The notes under the pieces are model-generated. The model worked only from the letters and a program-made list of their open reading frames with translations. It did no database searches and was not told where the DNA came from. A stretch of DNA of 64,000 nucleotides from contig CAMCWC010000015.1 of the NCBI GenBank assembly GCA_945882415.1, positions 1 to 64,000 on the forward strand, read 5' to 3'. The position numbers and the translations under genes are program-made. The stretch comes from Chthonomonas calidirosea (lineage in GTDB: Bacteria; Armatimonadota; Fimbriimonadia; Fimbriimonadales; Fimbriimonadaceae). This document shows, in pieces, positions 53,622 through 64,000 of this stretch. How positions within the stretch are numbered: the first letter of the stretch is position 1; the number at the start of each line of letters is the position of its first letter.

Positions 53622-53676
53622 ACCGTTATTCTACGCGAACCATCAAAAAGGTTCCGGAAACGTGGGATGCCGAAGC

Positions 53677-54642
53677 TCAGTCGACGGGCTTGAGGAATGC
53701 TCGTATCCCTTGCAGCAACTCAAGCACTTCCGGGAAAGACGGATAATCGCCGTGGCAGAGAATCTGGCATTGCTGTTCATAGTCTCGTCCGAGTGCAGCC
53801 GCGACCTCCGGATCTGGAAAGAGAGCGGCACTTGCTGAGAGCTCCAAGCGCTCAGGAAAAACCTGATTCGGAAAGTACTTGGTCGTGAGCGCGTGATAGT
53901 CCATCACGATTTCTGCGTACTCACTCGAACCTAGCATTGCTCTCACCTCATCTCTTGGCAAAAGCTGAGATAAATCGTAGTAGTGCCGGGCGTAACCCTC
54001 AATCGGTTTCCCTTCCTGCTGCAATCCTCGCGCCACTTTGTCATGGAGCGCAAACATTTTCTCCACAACGGTTCGGCGAAAGTGGAGGAGCTTCATCTGA
54101 AACGGCACACAGTCCTCTTGGTCAGGGGCAACTCCATTAGCAACTAAGTGCGCGGCCAGCAGCGACGTGATGGGCATTTGCTCGGTGGGGAATGTTCCGC
54201 TTTGGATGCCAAGTTCCAACAGCACGGAAGGGCTTATTCCATCAGAGCTTCGACTTGACCGGTACTTGAAGCGGACGGATCGCGCAACGCCCTTGATAAC
54301 CGGACCAGTTTCGGGGAGAGCGTCAAACGCTGGGTGGCTCGATCCCGACGCGATTACCTCTTTCAGCAAAGTGCTTCTGGCTTTCTCACCTTTGTCACCA
54401 GGCTCCACGTACAGGTCGATGTCCTCCGAAAATCGATTGATCAGGTTCCAGCCTTTCGACAAACTCGTCCCCCCTTTGAACAGCAGGATGTTTCCAAAGT
54501 CCCGTGCTAGCTGGCGAAGCAACTCGGTGACGAAGTAGTCCTTCTCGATGATCGCCGGTTTGACGTTCTGACTTTTTGCAGTCGAGTCAATCAACTGCGG
54601 GAAATCTTCGCGTTCAAAGAGCCACTTCATTTGGCTTGCCAT
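53677..54642 (-). CDS. abiEii: AbiEii-type nucleotidyltransferase toxin
   Basis: 321 residues, AbiEii/AbiGii (DUF1814) family, toxin of type IV toxin-antitoxin/abortive infection systems. The nucleotidyltransferase core is LLFKGGTSLSKGWNLINRFSE with DIDLYVE after it (GGTSL plus D-x-D). The C-terminal helical region contains KMFALHDKVARG and ARHYYDLSQLL, typical of the family. The start overlaps the antitoxin-like gene by 16 bp, so translation is coupled. The family modifies tRNA or other targets with nucleotides; AbiE-type systems block phage at a cost to the cell. Confidence 0.9.
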   Translation of the reverse strand: MASQMKWLFEREDFPQLIDSTAKSQNVKPAIIEKDYFVTELLRQLARDFGNILLFKGGTSLSKGWNLINRFSEDIDLYVEPGDKGEKARSTLLKEVIASGSSHPAFDALPETGPVIKGVARSVRFKYRSSRSSDGISPSVLLELGIQSGTFPTEQMPITSLLAAHLVANGVAPDQEDCVPFQMKLLHFRRTVVEKMFALHDKVARGLQQEGKPIEGYARHYYDLSQLLPRDEVRAMLGSSEYAEIVMDYHALTTKYFPNQVFPERLELSASAALFPDPEVAAALGRDYEQQCQILCHGDYPSFPEVLELLQGIRAFLKPVD

Positions 54643-55373
54643 CTCTTAGCAGTTTTTAGTACACGAAATGCTCCAAAGTCAAATTTTGACAAGGGATTAA
54701 GTGAGTCTCGCAATGGCTGCCAGAATCGTGGCGTTGTTCCGATCTCCTCAAGGAATGCGCCGAGCATGGCTCGGACCCTCGGCGGCTCGGACAGAGCTAC
54801 AGTGACCAATTGCCGTAACCTTCGGGGTTCAAGCTCAAGCAGCCGAGTCAGTACCGACTTCAGCGCATCCGCCGTGTCGGCATCGTCCATCTCACTAAAA
54901 CGCCCTCGGTCCCGCAACACTTCTAGTAAAGCGGCGTCTGCTTTCGCCAAGGTTTCTGTAGCTCCTGGACTACCCTTTCTCCGTTTCGGTCGAAGTACGC
55001 GGCTGTCTACTTTGGCCTGTCCATAGATCACGATCTGATCTCTCGCTGGAACTTGGGTTGAGAGCCCCAGCAAATTGGCAGCCGAGGTGCCGATTGGCCG
55101 CGATTTGCCCTTCAGGACTTTTTCAGCCACCGATGAAGCTGCCGGCTGGCTTTGACCAAGCAGCGTCGATCTTGGAACGTAGTACACCCCCTTCGACACT
55201 CTCTCAAGTTCGCCGCTTGCGCTCATTCTGGAAAGAGCTTTCATAACGGCAACCGCTTTGGTCGGGTCAAAGTCGCTGACACGAACAAACTTGCCAGCAT
55301 TTGCCTTTGCAGTTTTTTCCACCACCTTTGAAACGCTTTCCTTTCGCTTCAGGCGGACTTGGCCCTCGTTCAC
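54627..55373 (-). CDS. abiEi: AbiEi/DUF6088-type antitoxin
   Basis: 248 residues. An N-terminal winged-helix-like part (about 10-65: VSDFDPTKAVAVMKALSRMS, GELERVSKGVYYVP) is followed by IGTSAANLLGLSTQVPARDQ, matching AbiEi antitoxins that bind their own promoter and neutralise AbiEii. The start is GTG at 55373 with a complete promoter just upstream that predicts a leaderless mRNA. Base composition is lower in G/C than the neighbouring core genes (26 of 60 in 54661-54720 by my count). Confidence 0.85.
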   Translation of the reverse strand: MNEGQVRLKRKESVSKVVEKTAKANAGKFVRVSDFDPTKAVAVMKALSRMSASGELERVSKGVYYVPRSTLLGQSQPAASSVAEKVLKGKSRPIGTSAANLLGLSTQVPARDQIVIYGQAKVDSRVLRPKRRKGSPGATETLAKADAALLEVLRDRGRFSEMDDADTADALKSVLTRLLELEPRRLRQLVTVALSEPPRVRAMLGAFLEEIGTTPRFWQPLRDSLNPLSKFDFGAFRVLKTAKRWQAK

Positions 55374-55379
55374 AATTCT

Positions 55380-55407
55380 AGTATAGCTCTCAGGTTCAAT
55401 TTGTCAG
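55380..55407 (-). promoter_or_regulatory. Promoter of the abiE operon
   Basis: On the minus strand CTGACA (55407-55402), a 16-bp spacer, and TATACT (55385-55380). The GTG start of abiEi is 6 nt beyond the -10, so transcription should start at or next to the start codon. Confidence 0.7.
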
Positions 55408-55553
55408 GTTTAAATACCCAAAAAACGTGACATTTTGACTTTCAATCATGGCAAATGGAATGACTTGACCTGGGTAGCCCGATTAAAAAGCTATACAAAG
55501 AGATGCAGGCGAATAAATCGCCACCGGGATGAAGTTGACCATGCAAGGCCAAC

Positions 55554-55639
55554 TGGTGCGCGGGAAAAGACTCGAACTTTCACGCCTTGTGAGCGCTACC
55601 ACCTCAAGGTAGTGCGTCTACCAATTCCGCCACCCGCGC
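55554..55639 (-). tRNA. tRNA-Leu (anticodon GAG)
   Basis: Class II tRNA on the minus strand. Acceptor GCGCGGG (55639-55633) pairs with CCCGCGC (55564-55558), discriminator A, encoded CCA (55556-55554). The anticodon region CTACCTTGAGGTGGTAG is the same as in E. coli tRNA-Leu(GAG). T loop AGTTCGAGTCT. Its 3' end points to the AbiE pair; I found no second copy of the 3' end that would mark an integration site. Confidence 0.96.
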
Positions 55640-55690
55640 ACGAAAATGTAATGTACCCGATCTCTGCGGCGCGTATACTCGGGTTCCCCA

Positions 55691-56734
55691 ATGCAACCCA
55701 CCGGTGACCTACGTGTGACGGCTGTTCGGCCGCTTTTGCCTCCTGCGATTCTTATCGAAGAGGTCCCGCTCACCGATCAAGCTGCAAATCTCATCCACAG
55801 CGCACGACGCCAAATCGAGGCTTCGTTGCGCGGAGAAGACAAGCGGCTGGTTCTGATCATTGGCCCATGCTCGGTCCACGATCCGATCGCGGTGCTGGAT
55901 TACGCCGAAAAACTGAAGCAGCTTGCCGACCGATACGCGAACGAGTTGATCGTGGTGATGCGGTGCTACTTCGAAAAGCCGCGAACCACCGTCGGCTGGA
56001 AGGGCCTCATCAACGATCCGAACATCGATGGTTCGTTCCAGATCAACGTTGGCCTTCGCGTTGCGCGCAAGCTCCTTGCCGACGTGACCGCCATGGGACT
56101 TGCTCCGGCGACCGAATTTCTGGACACCACCATTCCGCAGCATATTGCCGACCTCATCGCCTGGGGAGCCATCGGCGCCCGAACGAGCGAGAGCCAAACT
56201 CACCGCGAACTCGCGAGCGGACTCTCCATGCCGGTCGGATTCAAGAATGCGACCGACGGAAACGTGCAGACCGCCATTGATGCGATCAAGACCGCGCGAC
56301 AACCGCACTGGTTCCCCGGTGCAACAAAGGACGGCATGAGCGCCATTATTCAAACCGCGGGCAACCCGAGCTGCCACGTCGTTCTCCGCGGCGGAAGCCG
56401 AACCGGGCCGAATTACACCTTCGAACACGTTCAGAACGCCCACCAGGTCTTAGAGCGCGAGCAACTGCCGAGCCGACTGATGGTGGACCTGAGCCACGCA
56501 AACTCCAGCAAAAACCACGCGCGCCAGATCGAGGTCGCAAAAGATGTCGCTGGCCAGCTTCGGAACGGCGACAGCTCGATCTTCGGCGTGATGATCGAGA
56601 GTTTCCTTACCGAGGGTCGACAAGACGCTGGATCGGGCACAGACCTAACCTACGGCCAGAGCATCACGGATGCCTGCCTGGGAATAGAGCAAACCGAACA
56701 GGTCCTCGAAATTCTTGCCCGGGGCTATTGCTGA
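55691..56734 (+). CDS. DAHP synthase (class I, AroF/G/H type)
   Basis: 3-deoxy-7-phosphoheptulonate synthase, first step of the shikimate pathway, 347 residues, standard length. Signatures: LVLIIGPCSVHDP (metal-binding Cys), MRCYFEKPRTTVGWKGLIND (PEP/phosphate site), GARTSESQTHRELASG, and the metal ligands in VDLSHANSSKNH and MIESFLTEGRQD. Which aromatic amino acid feeds back cannot be told by eye. TATACT (55674-55679) ends 11 nt before the ATG. It is a core gene between the tRNA and the AT-rich cassette. Confidence 0.96.
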   Translation: MQPTGDLRVTAVRPLLPPAILIEEVPLTDQAANLIHSARRQIEASLRGEDKRLVLIIGPCSVHDPIAVLDYAEKLKQLADRYANELIVVMRCYFEKPRTTVGWKGLINDPNIDGSFQINVGLRVARKLLADVTAMGLAPATEFLDTTIPQHIADLIAWGAIGARTSESQTHRELASGLSMPVGFKNATDGNVQTAIDAIKTARQPHWFPGATKDGMSAIIQTAGNPSCHVVLRGGSRTGPNYTFEHVQNAHQVLEREQLPSRLMVDLSHANSSKNHARQIEVAKDVAGQLRNGDSSIFGVMIESFLTEGRQDAGSGTDLTYGQSITDACLGIEQTEQVLEILARGYC

Positions 56735-56868
56735 GCCATCGGAACGGAAATTGACCACGAGACGTCCTACCTAGTACAACGTCCCTCACTCGCCTTGAAA
56801 TTGTGTTAGCATAGAGCAAATCAGACGTCAAGCCGATGAGAACAATGCCTTTAATATAACGTGATCAG

Positions 56869-57669
56869 ATGAGCGCAGACCAAATGTTTCCCCAAATCAA
56901 AAGAATTGCATTCGACAGAAATTTTATATCTGAAGTTTCTTTTGAATTGAGCTACGATCTCACGTTTGGATTGCAGTCTGGCCAACCACAATCTCTGAGA
57001 CAATCGGTCAGCGAGGACTTTCCAATTTACGTAGAGGGTTCAACAACGATTGATCTGCCACGATGGGGTGAGGAAGGTCACGTCTCCGCGTCCAGACCTG
57101 CGCACATATTTTTCAACGACGTAATGCAATCTGCACTTATTGTGTCAGAAGTTAAAACGCAGGTTGTTACAAACGACTACGTTGTTTACGAAAAATTTAG
57201 GGACCTTGTTTCTGTCGGATTTGAGAAGCTAGAAAATAGCCTAACATTCGGAAGATTACAGCAGTGCAAATTATCGTACACGAATAAAATTCCTGCGGTT
57301 CTAGTAGACCAAGACGATAAGACTCTTGCAAACGTGCTTAATTCCGAATTGATCGGGCTATTATCAGTGCCATCATTCGCAGAAGGACTAATGCGGAGCA
57401 AGCAGGAATTCGAAATTAGCATCTCAGAAAATATTTCCTTGGAAATATTTCTTACTCTCCCGATATCAAGTTTTAACGAGCCAAGTAGGAATGAATATGT
57501 TCTCAAATCAGTCTTCACAAGTCGCCGACCTGGATCACTCACAGGAGCAATCAACCAAATGGATGAGATGCACGGGTGGTCCAGCAGATTCTTCCACTGG
57601 GCAACAACGGACGAATTCAGATCACATCTCGGTGGTCTTATCATTCCTGAATTCACTGCAAAAGAATAA
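56869..57669 (+). CDS. TIGR04255-like protein, first gene of an AT-rich cassette
   Basis: 266 residues. The overall pattern fits the TIGR04255 family: an N-terminal strand with RIAFDRNFISEVSFELSYDL, a middle EKFRDLVSVGFEKLENSLTF followed by LSYTNKIP, and a C-terminal helix DEMHGWSSRFFHWATTDEFR. The biochemical function of this family is unknown to me. Base composition is far lower in G/C than the neighbours (22 of 60 in 57181-57240, against 42 of 60 in 56161-56220, by my count), which indicates transfer. The 3' end overlaps the next gene. A TAATAT (56850-56855) upstream may be its promoter. Confidence 0.65.
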   Translation: MSADQMFPQIKRIAFDRNFISEVSFELSYDLTFGLQSGQPQSLRQSVSEDFPIYVEGSTTIDLPRWGEEGHVSASRPAHIFFNDVMQSALIVSEVKTQVVTNDYVVYEKFRDLVSVGFEKLENSLTFGRLQQCKLSYTNKIPAVLVDQDDKTLANVLNSELIGLLSVPSFAEGLMRSKQEFEISISENISLEIFLTLPISSFNEPSRNEYVLKSVFTSRRPGSLTGAINQMDEMHGWSSRFFHWATTDEFRSHLGGLIIPEFTAKE

Positions 57670-58171
57670 CCCTAGCATTCCAAACTATGGCTATCTGAGT
57701 TATGCTCTTTTACGCTCGTTTTGCGAAGCATCAAGACTGTCAATTGGTCTTCACAGGCCGTTCGTTTTTAGGAATCCTGCTTCCACAAGCACTTTCGCGC
57801 CATCCAGCAATTTGCAAATTGCTAGGAATCAGTTATATGTTACGTGTACAAGGCTTCACGAGGAAGGTGACACTAGCATTGAAATCCCCAAACTTGAGTT
57901 GAGGCTAGCGGACACATTTCTCAAGTTGGTTTATGAAGCGGTCCCCGATCTCTCTTCACCAACAATATGGTTTAACGAAAACGATGGCATCGTCCTTGAA
58001 TGGGCCAGCAAAATCTCCGTTGCGACGATATACATACATGCGAGTGTGTTTGTTTTTGTTTCTGCGATCTCTGTTGACTCTGCCATCAGGACCGATGAGC
58101 AGGAATTCCAGAGCATTTCAGATCTTGTAGGCAGTTTTACCGACTTCCTACAAAATACAGGAGCTTGGTAG
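57632..58171 (+). CDS. Hypothetical protein, middle gene of AT-rich cassette
   Basis: 179 residues from GTG 57632; the frame is open back to ATG 57491, which would overlap the first gene by 179 bp. No family is recognised. A central part (LRSFCEASRLSIGLHRPFVF) and the C-terminal NENDGIVLEWASKISVATIY are the clearest features; the latter resembles an antiparallel sheet hairpin seen in small partner proteins. There is no membrane segment clearly long enough. Same A/T-rich composition as its neighbours. 7 bp separate it from the third gene, so the three form one operon. Confidence 0.55.
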   Translation: MVLSFLNSLQKNNPSIPNYGYLSYALLRSFCEASRLSIGLHRPFVFRNPASTSTFAPSSNLQIARNQLYVTCTRLHEEGDTSIEIPKLELRLADTFLKLVYEAVPDLSSPTIWFNENDGIVLEWASKISVATIYIHASVFVFVSAISVDSAIRTDEQEFQSISDLVGSFTDFLQNTGAW

Positions 58172-58178
58172 CTATTGG

Positions 58179-58622
58179 ATGCATCGGGACCTAGCTGAGT
58201 TATGCCAAGGACCAGAGGTGGCCGATGACGAGTACCTTTATCGTAGAGTTCCGCGGAGACGTAGCCATCTTAGGGAGACTGAAGGAGAACTACGGCCAAC
58301 AAGCGCCGCCTTTGAAGACTCAGAGCAACAAATTTCTGTTGATCTAGCCTCATTAAGAAAGGATCCTCGCGAGCTTTGCAATTACGAAGGCGACGGCGTT
58401 TTAATGCTTGAATGCGGAAAAGTTAAGAGGGACGTAAAGTGCAAAGACGGATCTGCATTTTGTGGCGTCTGGGCTGATCCGGTGGATGGGAATGAGGCAC
58501 ATGCATTGATTTGCGTCCGCCCAACCAAGGCTTCTACCGGATCGTTCAAACAAATAAAGACGGCCCTAGTACTGATTGCGAGTTGGAAAATCATTCCAGC
58601 TCCGCTAGACGACATCGTGTAA
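58179..58622 (+). CDS. Hypothetical protein, last gene of AT-rich cassette
   Basis: 147 residues. Pattern: EYLYRRVPRRRSHLRE near the N-terminus, then LRPTSAAFEDSEQQISVDLA, and NEAHALICVRPTKAS near the C-terminus. I have seen this arrangement (YRRV/RPTSAAF/SVDLA/AHAL) in short uncharacterised bacterial proteins, but I cannot name a family or function. Ends 18 bp before the convergent DUF4127 gene. Probably works with the two genes upstream. Confidence 0.6.
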   Translation: MHRDLAELCQGPEVADDEYLYRRVPRRRSHLRETEGELRPTSAAFEDSEQQISVDLASLRKDPRELCNYEGDGVLMLECGKVKRDVKCKDGSAFCGVWADPVDGNEAHALICVRPTKASTGSFKQIKTALVLIASWKIIPAPLDDIV

Positions 58623-58640
58623 CGGGAGGGCGCAGGTTCG

Positions 58641-60266
58641 CTAGTTCTTGGTCGCGCGTAGTTTGAAGTCCAGCCGTACTTCATACGCTCGGGGCCAAGG
58701 CAACCAGACCTTAACGTCCTCCAGGGTCGAGATCGTATAAGCGCCGTCGCTGGCATCGATCTTGGTGCCAAAGAACATGTCGCGGAAATATTCGCCGAGA
58801 AACCGCGCGAGGTCGCGCTGGACAAAGTTGTTGACCGCCGAGAGCGAGCTGCCCGTGGTCTCTTCTTTCGACGCACCGGGAAGCTCGGCAATCAGCTGAT
58901 AAGCCGCCGGTCGCGTGTACCGGTGATAGGCAAAGTCGTTGACCATGCGATGCAGCAGAAACTCGCACCGGGCAACCTCGTTATCCACGCTTCGGTTTCC
59001 AAGCTTGTGCGACATCGCCGCGATGTTGGCCGCGGGAATGGCCGTGCCAAGCGTGTTCCCGGCCGTGTTCCAGCCAGCGTAGCTCAGCAGCTTTTCTGCC
59101 CGGTTCCGCTCCGTGAGAACTTGGAACAGCCGCGGGTCGGCAACGCCGCTTGCGCCGAGGTTGATGTCTGCCACCGCGACCGGCTGGCCGAGATCAATCT
59201 CCTGACCTAACAGGGTCGAAAAGATCTCAAAAGACGAAGCGCGCGGGTTCGGACTGTTAATGAAGAGTGAGTAGTCATACAACCCGTCGCCGGTTGCGGG
59301 CCGGGCTCCGGCCGCGAAGATCTGATCTTCCAGCGACTTTCGGATCGGTTTCGATTCATAAAGCGCAATCTGGTTCACCGTCGATGGATCAGAAAAGACG
59401 ATTCGAACTCGTGGCGCCCAGTTGGCGGCTCTGAGCATGGCGCGAGAAATCAGGATATTGCTGTGCTGATCAATGCCTTCACAAAAGAAAACTCTGGCAT
59501 CCAAGTTATTTTGGGACACCGCCGCTCGAAGTGCGTTTGTTTCGCTCACGTGCGGCCCGTATTCTCGAGCGTCATCCTGACCGAGGATCAGATAGTCAAG
59601 ATCGCCTTTCTTCGAGAGATAGAGCAAATGCCCCTGAAGCTCGTGGTTGCGCTTGCGGGTTGCTCGATATCGTCGAACTTCCTCCGCGGGCACCATCTGC
59701 GTGGCGTTCCGAATCTTCTCGCGTAACTCTGGACTACCTGTCTGTCGGGATTGATCTTCGAGCTCGACCAATCTAGCGAGTTGCATGCGCCAGCTCGCGG
59801 CCTGGCGAGTTGCCGTTGGTGCAAGTCGCATCACCGCCGAGAAGGCATAGATCTGAAGGTTCGGTGCACGCTCCCGCAGTTTGACGAGCCGATTTAGTCG
59901 TGCCTTCGCCACGCCGAGCGGGACAGAATTTACACGGCTTTCGATCAACCCCCCGTAGGCGATCATGTCGGTCGACACGACAAGGGCGTCCAACTTTTCG
60001 ATCGGCTGTGCCTCGAGCCAATCCAAGATCGCGTCGGGCTGGCCAGGTGAGGTGAAACGGCCGAGAGTTTGGTACGGCGGCATCCGAACGTCGGCCCCAC
60101 CAATTCGACCAATCCACTGCGCGAACTGTCCCGAAGCCGGTCGGCTATCTAATGGAACCAGCAGAATCTGGTCTGCCCTCGCCATCCCGACGAGCAAAAA
60201 CCCGATCAGGATCGTGAGGAGTCGCACCCGGTTAAGGTACCCCCGGACCGAAATCGCCCTAGCCAT
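58641..60266 (-). CDS. DUF4127 family exported protein
   Basis: 541 residues from ATG 60266, which overlaps the helicase stop by 8 bp; the frame is open to 60356. A signal peptide (LLTILIGFLLVGMARA) precedes the DUF4127 start QILLVPLDSRPASGQFAQWI. Typical blocks follow: VSTDMIAYGGLIESR, YLILGQDDAREYGPHVSETN, and DINLGASGVADPRLF. The family has a Rossmann-like architecture with unknown activity; often linked to sugar or cell-surface metabolism. Probably co-transcribed with the helicase, which is not obviously related. Confidence 0.85.
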   Translation of the reverse strand: MARAISVRGYLNRVRLLTILIGFLLVGMARADQILLVPLDSRPASGQFAQWIGRIGGADVRMPPYQTLGRFTSPGQPDAILDWLEAQPIEKLDALVVSTDMIAYGGLIESRVNSVPLGVAKARLNRLVKLRERAPNLQIYAFSAVMRLAPTATRQAASWRMQLARLVELEDQSRQTGSPELREKIRNATQMVPAEEVRRYRATRKRNHELQGHLLYLSKKGDLDYLILGQDDAREYGPHVSETNALRAAVSQNNLDARVFFCEGIDQHSNILISRAMLRAANWAPRVRIVFSDPSTVNQIALYESKPIRKSLEDQIFAAGARPATGDGLYDYSLFINSPNPRASSFEIFSTLLGQEIDLGQPVAVADINLGASGVADPRLFQVLTERNRAEKLLSYAGWNTAGNTLGTAIPAANIAAMSHKLGNRSVDNEVARCEFLLHRMVNDFAYHRYTRPAAYQLIAELPGASKEETTGSSLSAVNNFVQRDLARFLGEYFRDMFFGTKIDASDGAYTISTLEDVKVWLPWPRAYEVRLDFKLRATKN

Positions 60267-62316
60267 GTGGTTCGTCCAAACCGATCCAGCCAACCGCATC
60301 CGCAATGTCATCAAAAACGCGCATGTCCGACGGCAGATTCGCGAGGATTTCCTCACCGTATCGCTTCGTTTTCAGTCGAGGATCAAGCAATGCAATGACG
60401 CCTTTGTCCGAGGAACGACGAATCAAGCGACCTGCGCCCTGCCGAACCATCATCTTCGTCTGAGCCAAGGTGTGCTCGCGGAATGGGTCGATTCCCTGCG
60501 ACACCAAGTACGCCATCCGAGCAATCTGAATCGGCTCCGTAGGGACCTCAAACGGCACTCGAACAAGAACCACGCACGAGAGCGTGTCGCCTGGCGCATC
60601 GAACCCGGTCCAGAACGAGCGTAACGCAAAGAGGCTGATCTCCGGCGATTCCTTAAAGCGATCTCCTACCGCCGCCGCACCCGTTTTGGGCTGCATCAGA
60701 ATCGGGAACTCCTCGCGGTTCATCAACTGAAACACGCCTTCCATCTCCTTTCGGCTATGGAAAAGCGCGAGCGTCCGTCCCTGGCAAGCTTCGATAATGT
60801 CCTGCAGTTCGCTCGCCAGCGCACGATAGTAGTTCGCCTCGTTGCCATCCCGACGCGCCGCGCTAGGATCCGGAATCGAGCCGACCTTTGGAATGTAAAC
60901 CGCCGCCTGCGTGGAGTGATCAAACGGCGATTCGAGGATTTCTCGAAAGTCCGGCTTCAGGCCGATGGACCGCTCAAAGAACGTGAACTCGCCATCGAGG
61001 ACGAGGGTTGCCGAGATACAAGCATGCGGCACCTTGCTCCACAGAATCTCTGTAAGTGGCGGTCCAAGGTCGACAATGTCCTGCCGAAGAATCGCATCTT
61101 GTGGGCCAAAGCCGAAGCTCGGTTGTCCCAGATAACTCACCGAAACCCCGTGCGGAGTAAAGATCGCTTCGCATCCTCGGGCAAAGTCGGAGAAATAGCT
61201 GATGTAGTTCCGGGCCGTTTCCTTGAGCCCGCGATCGGATTCATCAAGCACGCCCTCCGCCTGATCGACGATCCGCTGCGCGACGCTCGCGACCTCCATC
61301 ACCAAGGCCCGGGCCTGATCTAAATCGGCCGCCGCCCGAAACTGCTTAACCGCCGGATTGTCCTCGAGTTCGCTCGGCGCGGTCTGCAGAATTCCCGGCG
61401 TCCCCAGCCCGGCCCCCGGCTGTTCAAACTGCCGAATGTAAACGTCAAGGTCCTTTCGAATTTCCACAAGAAATCGGTCCCAGTTACCCGACACCAAAAA
61501 CGATCCCCGCTCGAGCGCGGGACGCAGCAGCCCCTCCAGCCGCCCGAGCAAGCCCAAAAGTGCCCGAATCCGGGGAGCGCTCAGCTCGAACTCAAGCCCG
61601 TTTTGCGCGGCTGAGGCAAAGTCGTGAGCCTCATCAAGCACGATGAAATCCAGCTTCCCGAGGATTCCTTCGCCTTCTCCCCCCTCCGTTCCGCTCGCCA
61701 TGAGCGCGTTTTGGATCACCACGTTGTGGTTCGTGATGATCACCTTGGCCTTCTCCGCTCGGCGACGAGCCGAATAGAAATAGCAATCGTGATAGACCGG
61801 GCACGCGCGTGCCGGACAAACGGGCGGCACCGCGATTCGGCTCCACGCTTTCGAGATTTCGGCTTTCGATATTGGCGCGGTACGCCGGAACTCCGTCTCC
61901 GTGCCTTCGGTAAGGCGAGCGCGGATGGCATCCATCTGCTGCGGCAGGTGCTGGTCCATGTCTACCAGGCACGCATAGCGCTGGCGACCTAACAGCAATG
62001 CAGTGGGAACTTCCTCATCAAACAGGGAAGCGGCAAACGGTACGTCTTTCTGCCAGTACTGGTCAGCCAGAACGTTTGTATACGTCGCGATGACCGTGCG
62101 CTTGTCGCCGGCAATGGCATGAGCAAACGCAGGAATAAGGCAGGCAAGACTCTTACCCAAGCCGGTGGGAGCTTCGAAGGCACCGGACTGTCCGCCCGCA
62201 ATAAGGTCGCTGAGCAAAGAGGAAAGCTGGATTTGACCCGCCCGTTCCATGAACCCGGGCTGTTGTCGCAACCGCTCAAATGCCAGCGCAATCAGTTCTT
62301 CCGGCGACGTCGGCAT
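60259..62316 (-). CDS. DinG-family ATP-dependent DNA helicase
   Basis: 685 residues, superfamily 2 iron-sulfur helicase (XPD/DinG type). Walker A is APTGLGKSLACLIPAF (about residues 45-60), the DEAH box is FIVLDEAHDF, and iron-sulfur cysteines are visible in RYACLVDM and CPARACPVYHDC. Motif VI is VRQGAGRLIRRSSDKGVIALLD. Resolves R-loops and replication conflicts. The start ATG is at 62316. Upstream on the same strand is a promoter-hairpin-terminator unit (62384-62480) that may control it. Confidence 0.94.
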   Translation of the reverse strand: MPTSPEELIALAFERLRQQPGFMERAGQIQLSSLLSDLIAGGQSGAFEAPTGLGKSLACLIPAFAHAIAGDKRTVIATYTNVLADQYWQKDVPFAASLFDEEVPTALLLGRQRYACLVDMDQHLPQQMDAIRARLTEGTETEFRRTAPISKAEISKAWSRIAVPPVCPARACPVYHDCYFYSARRRAEKAKVIITNHNVVIQNALMASGTEGGEGEGILGKLDFIVLDEAHDFASAAQNGLEFELSAPRIRALLGLLGRLEGLLRPALERGSFLVSGNWDRFLVEIRKDLDVYIRQFEQPGAGLGTPGILQTAPSELEDNPAVKQFRAAADLDQARALVMEVASVAQRIVDQAEGVLDESDRGLKETARNYISYFSDFARGCEAIFTPHGVSVSYLGQPSFGFGPQDAILRQDIVDLGPPLTEILWSKVPHACISATLVLDGEFTFFERSIGLKPDFREILESPFDHSTQAAVYIPKVGSIPDPSAARRDGNEANYYRALASELQDIIEACQGRTLALFHSRKEMEGVFQLMNREEFPILMQPKTGAAAVGDRFKESPEISLFALRSFWTGFDAPGDTLSCVVLVRVPFEVPTEPIQIARMAYLVSQGIDPFREHTLAQTKMMVRQGAGRLIRRSSDKGVIALLDPRLKTKRYGEEILANLPSDMRVFDDIADAVGWIGLDEPHG

Positions 62317-62383
62317 TCACCGATATTGTCACCGATTTCTATTGGAACTCGTTGAACGAAGAATCTCGTACAACGTTAAGCTT

Positions 62384-62446
62384 AAGAAAAGGCTCGGGAA
62401 AACCCGAGCCCAATAAAAGTAAGGAAGTGGCCTGACTTCTCAGGTC
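62384..62446 (-). ncRNA. Putative small RNA or attenuator leader upstream of the DinG-like gene
   Basis: Read on the minus strand: a 7-bp hairpin with GAAG loop (arms 62446-62440 and 62435-62429), an 18-nt pyrimidine-rich linker containing CTTCCTTAC (62428-62411), then a perfect 8-bp hairpin CCCGAGCC/GGCTCGGG (62410-62403, 62398-62391) with a 4-nt loop, followed by TTTTCTTAAG. That last part is a canonical intrinsic terminator. A -10/-35 pair with 17-bp spacing lies right upstream. The linker is complementary to Shine-Dalgarno sequences, as in trans-acting sRNAs. Either a free RNA of about 62 nt or a leader that can terminate before the helicase. Confidence 0.55.
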
Positions 62447-62451
62447 CTATT

Positions 62452-62480
62452 TCTATATCACAGGCCGCGCGATTAACCAA
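62452..62480 (-). promoter_or_regulatory. Promoter of the putative sRNA / helicase leader, with overlapping palindrome
   Basis: On the minus strand TTGGTT (62480-62475), a 17-bp spacer and TATAGA (62457-62452). The -35 overlaps the left arm of a CCAAG-N7-CTTGG palindrome (62477-62493) that could be a repressor operator. Confidence 0.5.
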
Positions 62481-62628
62481 GGAAATTTCTTGGCACTATC
62501 CTGTTTTGCGTCAAAACGCGCTGAAATCAAGAAAAAGTGCTAGGTGGGCCCGCCGATCTCAGCTTCGAGAACATCTTATAATTTGATTCCCCCGTTTTCC
62601 CTTCTACCGGGCTACACTAGTTCCGCGC

Positions 62629-64000
62629 ATGGCGATGAAGCAGGCGGAAGAAAAGGAGATCACGTCGTCCCCATCTATCTCCGGGTACGAGGCTGGCTTC
62701 AGCCCTTTTCGTATTCGCGCAGTCATTCTTGGATTCCTGCTGTGCATTCCCGTCACTTACGCCTGCACAAATCAGAGCGTCTCCGGCTTCTTTAGCCTCA
62801 TGACCGCGCCGATTTCGGCGCTGCTTTTTTGCCTGATCGCCAACATCGTTCTTCGGAAAGTCAGCCCGAAGCTCGCGCTTTCCCAAAGCGATCTCATCAT
62901 CATCTTTTGCATCACGGCTTGCGCCGGCGCGATCGCGGGCGAATGGACCGAGTTTGGCCACGCCGCCACCTACAACTACCCCTATAACAGTAAGTGGAGC
63001 GACGGCTACAAAAACATCCTGTCCAAAAATGTTCCTGACGCCTTAGTGATCAAAGACTTCGACGAAGTCAAAGACATTCAGGGTGGCGGGAAGGACATGG
63101 GCTACGTCTTCTCGAGGCTCGGGACTTACCTTCCGCGCTGGGCAACTTGGGGCGGACTCATATGCACCCTCTGTTTTGCCATGCTGTGCCTCAACAGCCT
63201 CATGCGGACCGCGTGGTGCGAGCGCGAGCGCCTCACCTTCCCCCTGATCCAATTGCCGATCGCAATGTGCGAGAAAGGCGGGGCAGGCGGCATGTGGAAA
63301 AGCAAGTACATGTGGATCGCGTTCGCGGTGATGTTCGGCATCGACATGCTGAACGGGCTGAACTACCTCTATCCCAGCCTGCCCGCCATCCCGGTCAAGA
63401 CGCTATTCTTCATTGACCAAACGTTCAAAGAACCGCCGCTCAGCAACATCGGAGACTTCCGAATCTCGATCTATCCGTTCATGTCGGCCATCGGCTTGTT
63501 CATCCCGAGCGACCTTCTCATCAGCATCGTCGCCTTCTTCTTGCTGAGGAAAGCAACCCACGTTGCGCTGGCCGCAAACGGCATTCCGCAAAGTACGTTT
63601 TCCGGTACCGGTCTACTTCCTGGACCACCGTACTTTGATGAGCAAACGTGGGGAGCGGTCATTGCGATGTTCCTGGGCGCGCTCTGGGTCAGCCGCGAAT
63701 ACCTTCGAGACGTCTGGTCCGACATCAAAACCGGTAGCCGTTCGGCAGACGGCGGCGTCACCCACCGATGGGCATTCATCGGCCTCATCGCCAGTTTCGT
63801 GGTGCTCGTTGGATACGGCGTATGGGGCAACCTGCCGATCCCGTACATGATCTTCTACATCGCGCTGTTCTTGGTCTTCTCGGTGGTCCTGACGAGAATT
63901 CGCGCGCAGCTCGGTCCGCCGACTCACGAGTTTGCCTTCTTCGGTTCAAACAGCATCATGCATCGGTTCATGGGCACCAAGTGGATTTCGGACGGCCAGG
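62629..64000 (+). CDS. DUF6785/DUF6784-type polytopic membrane protein, cut by window edge
   Basis: At least 457 residues; the frame runs off the right edge with no stop. N-terminal tail of about 25 residues, then membrane segments at about 31-47, 55-75, 85-103, 170-190, 222-240, 280-305, 345-360, 385-400 and 408-425. The stretch RTAWCERERLTFPLIQLPIAM, FRISIYPFMSAIGLFIPSDL and the HEFAFFGSN region resemble the DUF6785 family seen in Armatimonadota and Planctomycetes, which recalls oligopeptide-transporter-like folds. Function unknown. The start is ATG 62629 or ATG 62635. Confidence 0.75.
   Translation, partial: MAMKQAEEKEITSSPSISGYEAGFSPFRIRAVILGFLLCIPVTYACTNQSVSGFFSLMTAPISALLFCLIANIVLRKVSPKLALSQSDLIIIFCITACAGAIAGEWTEFGHAATYNYPYNSKWSDGYKNILSKNVPDALVIKDFDEVKDIQGGGKDMGYVFSRLGTYLPRWATWGGLICTLCFAMLCLNSLMRTAWCERERLTFPLIQLPIAMCEKGGAGGMWKSKYMWIAFAVMFGIDMLNGLNYLYPSLPAIPVKTLFFIDQTFKEPPLSNIGDFRISIYPFMSAIGLFIPSDLLISIVAFFLLRKATHVALAANGIPQSTFSGTGLLPGPPYFDEQTWGAVIAMFLGALWVSREYLRDVWSDIKTGSRSADGGVTHRWAFIGLIASFVVLVGYGVWGNLPIPYMIFYIALFLVFSVVLTRIRAQLGPPTHEFAFFGSNSIMHRFMGTKWISDGQ

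What the first reader, a model, noticed from the sequence alone, without database searches (positions are those of the whole stretch)
56869..58622. AT-rich three-gene cassette headed by a TIGR04255-like protein
Three short, tightly packed plus-strand genes have a base composition unlike everything around them (22 of 60 G/C in one sampled line against 42 of 60 in the adjacent DAHP synthase). None has a known activity, and the gene order (TIGR04255-like, middle protein with DGIVLEW, YRRV/RPTSAAF/AHAL protein) looks like a fixed module. It lies within 3.5 kb of an AbiE toxin-antitoxin pair and a tRNA, as in a small defence island. Function as a defence or conflict system is inference.
Basis: partly seen in the sequence, partly recalled or inferred. 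Interest (0 to 1): 0.68.

Follow-up and report, generated by a model that had tools for sequence, protein, structure and literature searches.

The report
Mobile three-gene toxin-antitoxin-like cassette
A small inserted set of three genes, found in the same order across many bacterial phyla and in some phages, most likely encodes a self-restrained toxin with the fold of NAD-using ADP-ribosylating enzymes, plus two partner proteins; it matters because the lead gene (TIGR04255) turns out to head similar cassettes that end in many different known toxins.

Summary
Genes at 56869-57669, about 57632-58171 and 58179-58622 form a low-GC cassette (45% against 56%). A congener at 82-84% nucleotide identity has the clean empty site, and none of 19 congeners carries TIGR04255. 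Gene 1 is a true TIGR04255 member. A scan that used only TIGR04255 as query found 36 loci in at least nine phyla and three viral contigs; 29 carry gene-3 homologues just downstream in the same order, with none elsewhere. Gene 2 and gene 3 families match PADLOC's phage-defence candidate PDC-M32A/B. The gene-3 model (pLDDT 88) matches ADP-ribosyltransferase-fold proteins almost exclusively (Tpt1, DUF952, HopF, RES), with conserved R22, S53, H108. In other TIGR04255 cassettes the third slot holds PIN, MazF, HEPN-like or zeta toxins. Best reading: a tripartite toxin-antitoxin-like cassette with an ART-fold effector, analogous to CmdTAC but built on TIGR04255 instead of a SecB-like chaperone. Toxicity, neutralisation and phage defence are inferred, not shown. 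The neighbouring AbiE pair is a separate insertion, and relatives seldom sit in defence islands.

The parts
56719..58634 (.). Inserted segment holding exactly the cassette; absent (7 bp instead) from congener G014
   Evidence: blastn of window against G014 region L162: matches 55533-56718 and 58635-63998 abut with a 7-bp gap
56869..57669 (+). Gene 1: TIGR04255 family protein, predicted duplicated TBP-like saddle
   Evidence: NCBIfam TIGR04255 66 bits; AlphaFold2 of family member L107 pLDDT 92.3; Foldseek to TBP, VIA to guanido kinases and TBP
57632..58171 (+). Gene 2: divergent member of the 'W[DN]G...DG.I..EW' family (PDC-M32A C-terminal domain type); possible alternative ATG start at 57563
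   Evidence: family profile scores it 19.5 bits, best of 2000 shuffles 7.0; PADLOC PDC-M32A E 0.0056; same operon position as in relatives
58179..58622 (+). Gene 3: ART-fold protein, putative NAD-using effector; conserved R22, S53, H108
   Evidence: phmmer/HMM homologues; AlphaFold2 pLDDT 88.1; fold matches; conservation
53677..55373 (-). Neighbouring AbiE toxin-antitoxin pair (AbiEii 53677-54642, AbiEi 54627-55373); separate insertion, not part of the cassette
   Evidence: Pfam/PADLOC; 53638-55532 absent from G014
55554..55639 (-). tRNA-Leu (GAG), conserved in the relative; not part of the cassette
   Evidence: ARAGORN; aligned in G014

Best explanation
It is a horizontally acquired, self-contained three-gene conflict cassette of toxin-antitoxin type. 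Gene 3 is an ADP-ribosyltransferase-fold enzyme that, when free, uses NAD+ either to modify a cell or phage molecule or simply to destroy NAD+, and so stops growth. Gene 2, translated just before it and overlapping gene 1, is the neutralising partner. Gene 1 (TIGR04255, a two-lobed TBP-like saddle) is the shared scaffold or sensor that keeps gene 2 and gene 3 together and lets go on a trigger such as phage infection. Shown here: the module, its mobility, its spread, the predicted fold and conserved residues of gene 3, and the exchange of known toxins in the third position of other TIGR04255 cassettes. Inferred: toxicity, which gene neutralises, the role of gene 1, NAD+ use, and the trigger.
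For: Fixed order in 29 of 36 independent loci found through gene 1 only. Clean empty site and absence from 19 congeners. Gene 3 model hits are nearly all ART superfamily: Tpt1/KptA Z 6.9-8.2, DUF952 6.0, AvrPphF/HopF 5.0, pierisin 4.0, RES toxin 3.0-3.1, ahead of unrelated folds; R22 54/55, S53 54/54, H108 53/54. Third slot of other TIGR04255 cassettes: PIN, MazF/PemK, zeta toxin, HEPN-like. Gene 2 + gene 3 also occur as a pair without gene 1, as in two-gene toxin-antitoxin modules. PADLOC phage-defence candidate PDC-M32A/B matches. A phage contig carries it beside tail and lysis genes (L140).
Against: No experiment. Foldseek E-values for gene 3 are not significant alone (best 0.058), and Z of about 8 is within the range seen for models without true relatives. 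The canonical glutamate of toxin ARTs is replaced by histidine, so a binding rather than catalytic role is possible. Gene 2 has no known fold and the window copy is very divergent (about 10-18% identity). Flanking genes of relatives show no strong defence enrichment. In 12 phylum members and more elsewhere the third gene is a family of unknown function, not a known toxin.
Confidence: 0.6

Rival explanations
1. The cassette is a toxin-antitoxin module whose only role is its own maintenance (addiction), with no part in phage defence.
For: Compact, mobile, sporadic (41 of 291 phylum genomes, 23 of 244 and 41 of 246 in two other phyla), present on plasmids and single insertions in ordinary surroundings.
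Against: Match to a phage-defence candidate defined by others and carriage by phages lean to inter-phage conflict, but do not exclude this.
Confidence: 0.25
2. Gene 3 is not a toxin but a non-enzymatic or regulatory ART-like or unrelated small domain; the cassette is a signalling or nucleic-acid-binding complex with the TBP-like gene 1 as DNA/RNA binder.
For: Gene 1 resembles TBP; the usual ART glutamate is absent in gene 3; fold E-values are weak.
Against: R, S and H are nearly invariant across 57 divergent sequences, which fits an active site; known toxins take the same slot in sister cassettes.
Confidence: 0.12
3. Ordinary vertically inherited genes that happen to be AT-rich.
For: None beyond intact frames.
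Against: Absent from all congeners searched, clean empty site, AT-rich codon use.
Confidence: 0.02

Closest known systems
PDC-M32 (PADLOC phage-defence candidate; reported in a Sinorhizobium prophage, PMC12429752)
   Same: Gene 2 family matches the C-terminal part of PDC-M32A and gene 3 family matches PDC-M32B
   Different: PDC-M32A has an unrelated N-terminal domain of about 250 aa (also seen next to PIN toxins) fused to the gene-2 domain; here a separate TIGR04255 gene takes that place. No activity has been published for PDC-M32 in the library searched.
CmdTAC, toxin-antitoxin-chaperone defence system (PMC11618068)
   Same: Three genes; an ADP-ribosyltransferase toxin; a third component beyond toxin and antitoxin
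   Different: CmdC is SecB-like, CmdT is a diphtheria-toxin-type ART (H-Y-[E,D,Q]); here the third component is TIGR04255 (TBP-like) and gene 3 has R-S-H and resembles Tpt1, not tested for relation to CmdT
RES-Xre toxin-antitoxin (RES = ART-fold NADase; e.g. PMC11535050)
   Same: ART-superfamily fold, small cassette; RES chains appear among the fold matches (6gw6 Z 3.1)
   Different: No RES family HMM match, partner is not Xre, three genes
Tpt1/KptA RNA 2'-phosphotransferase (PMC6333775)
   Same: Best fold match, NAD lobe only (8tg3 Z 8.2, 97 residues, rmsd 3.1)
   Different: Lacks the RNA (winged-helix) lobe; arginine replaces the histidine of the HGT-type strand (inferred); only about 10% identity

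Membership tests
TIGR04255 family (gene 1) | Score above curated cut-off of NCBIfam TIGR04255 | tested here: met
   66 bits against 30, residues 15-255 of 266
PDC-M32 (PADLOC) | PDC-M32B family protein (gene 3) | tested here: inconclusive
   Window gene 3 itself has no PADLOC match; relative L118 gene 3 matches PDC-M32B at 7e-5; window type and L118 type are homologous by hhalign, P 7e-9
PDC-M32 (PADLOC) | PDC-M32A with its N-terminal domain fused to the gene-2 domain | tested here: not met
   Gene 2 matches only profile positions 302-356 (E 0.0056); gene 1 has no PADLOC match
ADP-ribosyltransferase superfamily (gene 3) | ART fold | tested here: met
   AlphaFold2 pLDDT 88.1; nearly all matches with Z 3.0 or more are ART-fold chains; predicted structure only
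ADP-ribosyltransferase superfamily (gene 3) | Known ART active-site motif (R-S-E, H-Y-E or H-H type) in register | tested here: inconclusive
   R22, S53, H108 nearly invariant on three strands; superposition on NAD-bound structures not available; third residue is H, not E
ADP-ribosyltransferase superfamily (gene 3) | NAD+ binding or cleavage | not testable with these tools
   needs biochemistry
Tripartite toxin-antitoxin-chaperone (TAC) | SecB-like chaperone as third component | tested here: not met
   Gene 1 is TIGR04255 with a TBP-like duplicated fold; no SecB match by Pfam
Toxin-antitoxin system (general) | Toxicity of one gene neutralised by another | not testable with these tools
   inferred from slot exchange with PIN, MazF, zeta and HEPN-like genes
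Anti-phage defence system | Protection from phage | not testable with these tools
   no phage assay possible; flanks show little defence enrichment

The most novel reading that the evidence does not exclude
TIGR04255 marks an unrecognised, widespread superclass of tripartite toxin systems: one TBP-like adapter/sensor protein plus a variable middle protein and interchangeable effectors (ART-fold, PIN, HEPN, MazF, zeta and families of unknown function), of which the window cassette is the ART-fold branch with a new R-S-H active site.
Probability: 0.45. Interest if true: 0.8.

Novelty: new variant of a known kind. Interest (0 to 1): 0.62.

Why it matters
TIGR04255 is annotated in public genomes as a 'sporadically distributed' family of unknown role, and no paper in the full-text library searched mentions it. 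If its cassettes are toxin systems with a common adapter and exchangeable toxins, one experiment on the adapter would explain many unannotated loci at once, and the third-slot families of unknown function (such as the QGDI/TQSCD proteins) become toxin candidates. The finding also gives PADLOC's PDC-M32B a testable activity: an NAD+-using ART-fold effector.

Tried and rejected
Sequence searches of solved structures with gene 1 and gene 3 profiles found nothing usable; 9hnh matches gene 1 twice through a repeated unit and looks like a repeat protein, so it was discarded. tblastn of the three window proteins and of two gene-3 relatives in plasmids gave nothing; only relatives of gene 1 did. A viral scan with the gene-3 alignment found nothing; the gene-1 alignment found three viral contigs. 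A phage-record search with one gene-1 relative found none. Defence-island enrichment in relatives: not supported. tRNA as an insertion site: rejected, since the tRNA is in the relative and the insertion lies at the end of aroG. PDC-M32A N-terminal domain as a TIGR04255 homologue: not supported; it is a different domain found beside PIN genes. Gene 2 as an unrelated ORF: rejected by shuffles. Gene 1 as an enzyme because of guanido-kinase matches (Z 8.8): not claimed; TBP and AdoMetDC share the same duplicated layout and Z is in the range of common arrangements. The AbrB-like look of the N-terminal extension of gene 2 in the two-gene pairs (L039, L040) had no Pfam support and is left as an impression.

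Full report
Observation. The three ORFs are real and correctly placed. Gene 1, 56869-57669, is a member of NCBIfam TIGR04255 (66 bits, cut-off 30). Gene 3 is 58179-58622. Gene 2 ends at 58171; its frame is open from 57392, and likely starts are GTG 57632 or ATG 57563, so it overlaps the end of gene 1. None has a Pfam match. The stretch is AT-rich, with third-position GC of 0.42-0.46 against 0.68-0.73 for the housekeeping neighbours; only 2 of 623 windows of this size in the 64 kb are as low.

Origin. In congener G014, 82-84% identical in nucleotides, the DAHP synthase gene runs straight into the 3' end of the DUF4127 gene: window 56719-58634 is replaced by 7 bases. The cassette is therefore a clean insertion at the very end of the DAHP synthase gene, changing its last few codons. 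The AbiE pair (53638-55532) is absent too, replaced by about 100 bases, as an independent event; the tRNA-Leu between them is in both genomes. None of 19 congeners has TIGR04255 by profile, and by protein search only the window genome among 61 relatives has it. The phylum is Armatimonadota: the genome-collection contig behind L107, a Chthonomonadaceae MAG, has the same length (34,877) and content as G114:C158 of the same-phylum search (inference).

Module. Inside the phylum, the same order TIGR04255, middle, third gene of the window type is in G108 (L038) and G114 (L082). A scan of 84,980 species genomes and of viral contigs with a TIGR04255 alignment only gave 33 and 3 loci, from Acidobacteria, Planctomycetes, Verrucomicrobia, Proteobacteria, Desulfobacterales, Cyanobacteria, Bacteroidetes, Gemmatimonadota, Omnitrophota and Armatimonadota. 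Downstream, on the same strand and with nearly constant spacing, stand a protein with W[DN]G...P...DG.I..EW and a protein with E.LxR...AF...SV...HA.I. With leave-one-out profiles, gene 3 homologues are found downstream in 29 of 36 loci and nowhere else in them; the others are contig ends, masked or more divergent. The window-type and common-type gene 3 profiles align end to end (hhalign probability 95.8, P 7e-9); a third type also aligns (P 7e-7), while HEPN, QGDI and PIN controls do not. Window gene 2 is a divergent member of the middle family: 19.5 bits, best of 2000 shuffles 7.0, and it hits the same PADLOC profile (PDC-M32A, E 0.0056) as its relatives (down to 5e-6).

Known system. Relatives of gene 2 and gene 3 match PADLOC PDC-M32A (C-terminal part) and PDC-M32B. 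PDC-M32 is a phage-defence candidate, reported also in a Sinorhizobium prophage (PMC12429752). In PDC-M32A the middle domain is fused to another N-terminal domain; genes matching that domain alone were found here beside PIN toxin-like genes. Pairs of gene 2 and gene 3 without TIGR04255 exist (L039, L040, L041, L069, L072).

Gene 3 fold. AlphaFold2 of the window protein with 26 homologues gives pLDDT 88.1, pTM 0.83. Foldseek puts Tpt1/KptA chains first, at weak E-values (0.058 and above). Re-aligned with VIA-align 2, the top 17 entries and most of the top 22 belong to the ADP-ribosyltransferase superfamily: Tpt1 (Z up to 8.2, 97 residues, rmsd 3.1), CC0527/DUF952 (6.0), AvrPphF ORF2 (5.0), pierisin-1 (4.0), a classical ART holotoxin (3.4) and RES (3.1, 3.0). 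Any single match would be marginal; the agreement of six separate ART families is what carries weight. That DUF952 and the others share the ART fold is my own knowledge. In 57 gene 3 sequences R22 (54 of 55), S53 (54 of 54) and H108 (53 of 54) are nearly invariant, and sit on three strands of the model (19-24, 51-56, 108-114). By analogy with R-S-E ARTs, R on the first strand and S on a central strand fit; H in place of E would be unusual. This register is inferred; no superposition could be inspected.

Gene 1 fold. A family member modelled at pLDDT 92.3 shows a duplicated beta-alpha-beta-sheet-alpha layout. Foldseek gives AdoMetDC/prozyme and TBP (E 3e-4 to 1e-3); VIA gives guanido kinases (Z 8.8) and TBP (about 6.5). 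I read this as a two-lobed saddle suited to binding, with no enzymatic claim.

Third-slot exchange. Of 51 TIGR04255 hits in the phylum, the third gene is gene-3-like in 16, a 'QGDI...TQSCDL' protein in 12, HEPN-like in 7, PIN in 3, and other or cut off in 13 (types were defined from these loci). PIN is confirmed by Pfam (up to 45 bits); HEPN scores sit just under its cut-off (20.5 and 18.4 against 22). In cyanobacterial and planctomycete genomes the slot again holds QGDI proteins, gene-3-like proteins, PIN (five more) and a MazF/PemK toxin (51 bits). On a Vibrio plasmid it holds a zeta toxin (47 bits). Such exchange is what a toxin slot would show, and is the main reason to read gene 3 as an effector.

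Context. One viral contig (L140) carries the cassette beside tail terminator, spanin and endolysin genes, so phages carry it; a second (L141) has a terminase match. Among 108 proteins flanking the 36 loci only scattered defence hits appear (two type I methyltransferases; two Panacea antitoxins) among ordinary genes. The cassette therefore usually travels alone rather than in defence islands.

Mechanism and nearest analogue. The most likely scheme is that of CmdTAC, where a third protein holds antitoxin and ART toxin until a phage capsid protein displaces it (PMC11618068). Here TIGR04255 would take the place of the SecB-like chaperone. Shown: module, mobility, fold prediction, conserved residues, slot exchange. 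Inferred: toxicity, neutralisation by gene 2, the role of gene 1, NAD+ use, and phage as trigger. Confidence 0.6 for the tripartite toxin-antitoxin reading, lower (about 0.5) for phage defence as its role.

Noticed in passing
window 53638-55532: The AbiE toxin-antitoxin pair between lipoyl synthase and tRNA-Leu is a separate recent insertion, absent from congener G014 (106 bp there).
   Followed up: partly
L044, L079, L092, L171, L181 and others: A family of about 180-230 aa with 'QGDI...VVMTQSCDL' and no Pfam match is a very common third gene behind TIGR04255, especially in cyanobacteria; a candidate toxin family of unknown fold.
   Followed up: partly
L168 991-2105 (Vibrio plasmid CP063527.1): TIGR04255 followed by a hypothetical protein and a zeta toxin in one operon-like row.
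   Followed up: partly
L210 2604-2969: MazF/PemK toxin in the third position behind TIGR04255.
   Followed up: no
L067, L068, L070, L074: Genes matching the N-terminal domain of PDC-M32A (without the middle domain) stand directly upstream of PIN toxin-like genes, so that domain is shared between two kinds of toxin cassette.
   Followed up: partly
G116 (L071, L075, L076, L077, L078): One genome carries six TIGR04255 cassettes with different third genes (gene-3 types, HEPN-like, PIN, other).
   Followed up: no
L140 2856-4509: The trio lies in a phage contig close to tail terminator, spanin and endolysin genes; nearly the same cassette is in Rhodanobacter (L109).
   Followed up: partly
L073 7526-7927: A gene-2 relative stands alone, without an evident gene-3 partner.
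   Followed up: no
L207, L208: The third position behind TIGR04255 holds a DUF7689 protein (L207 137 bits).
   Followed up: no
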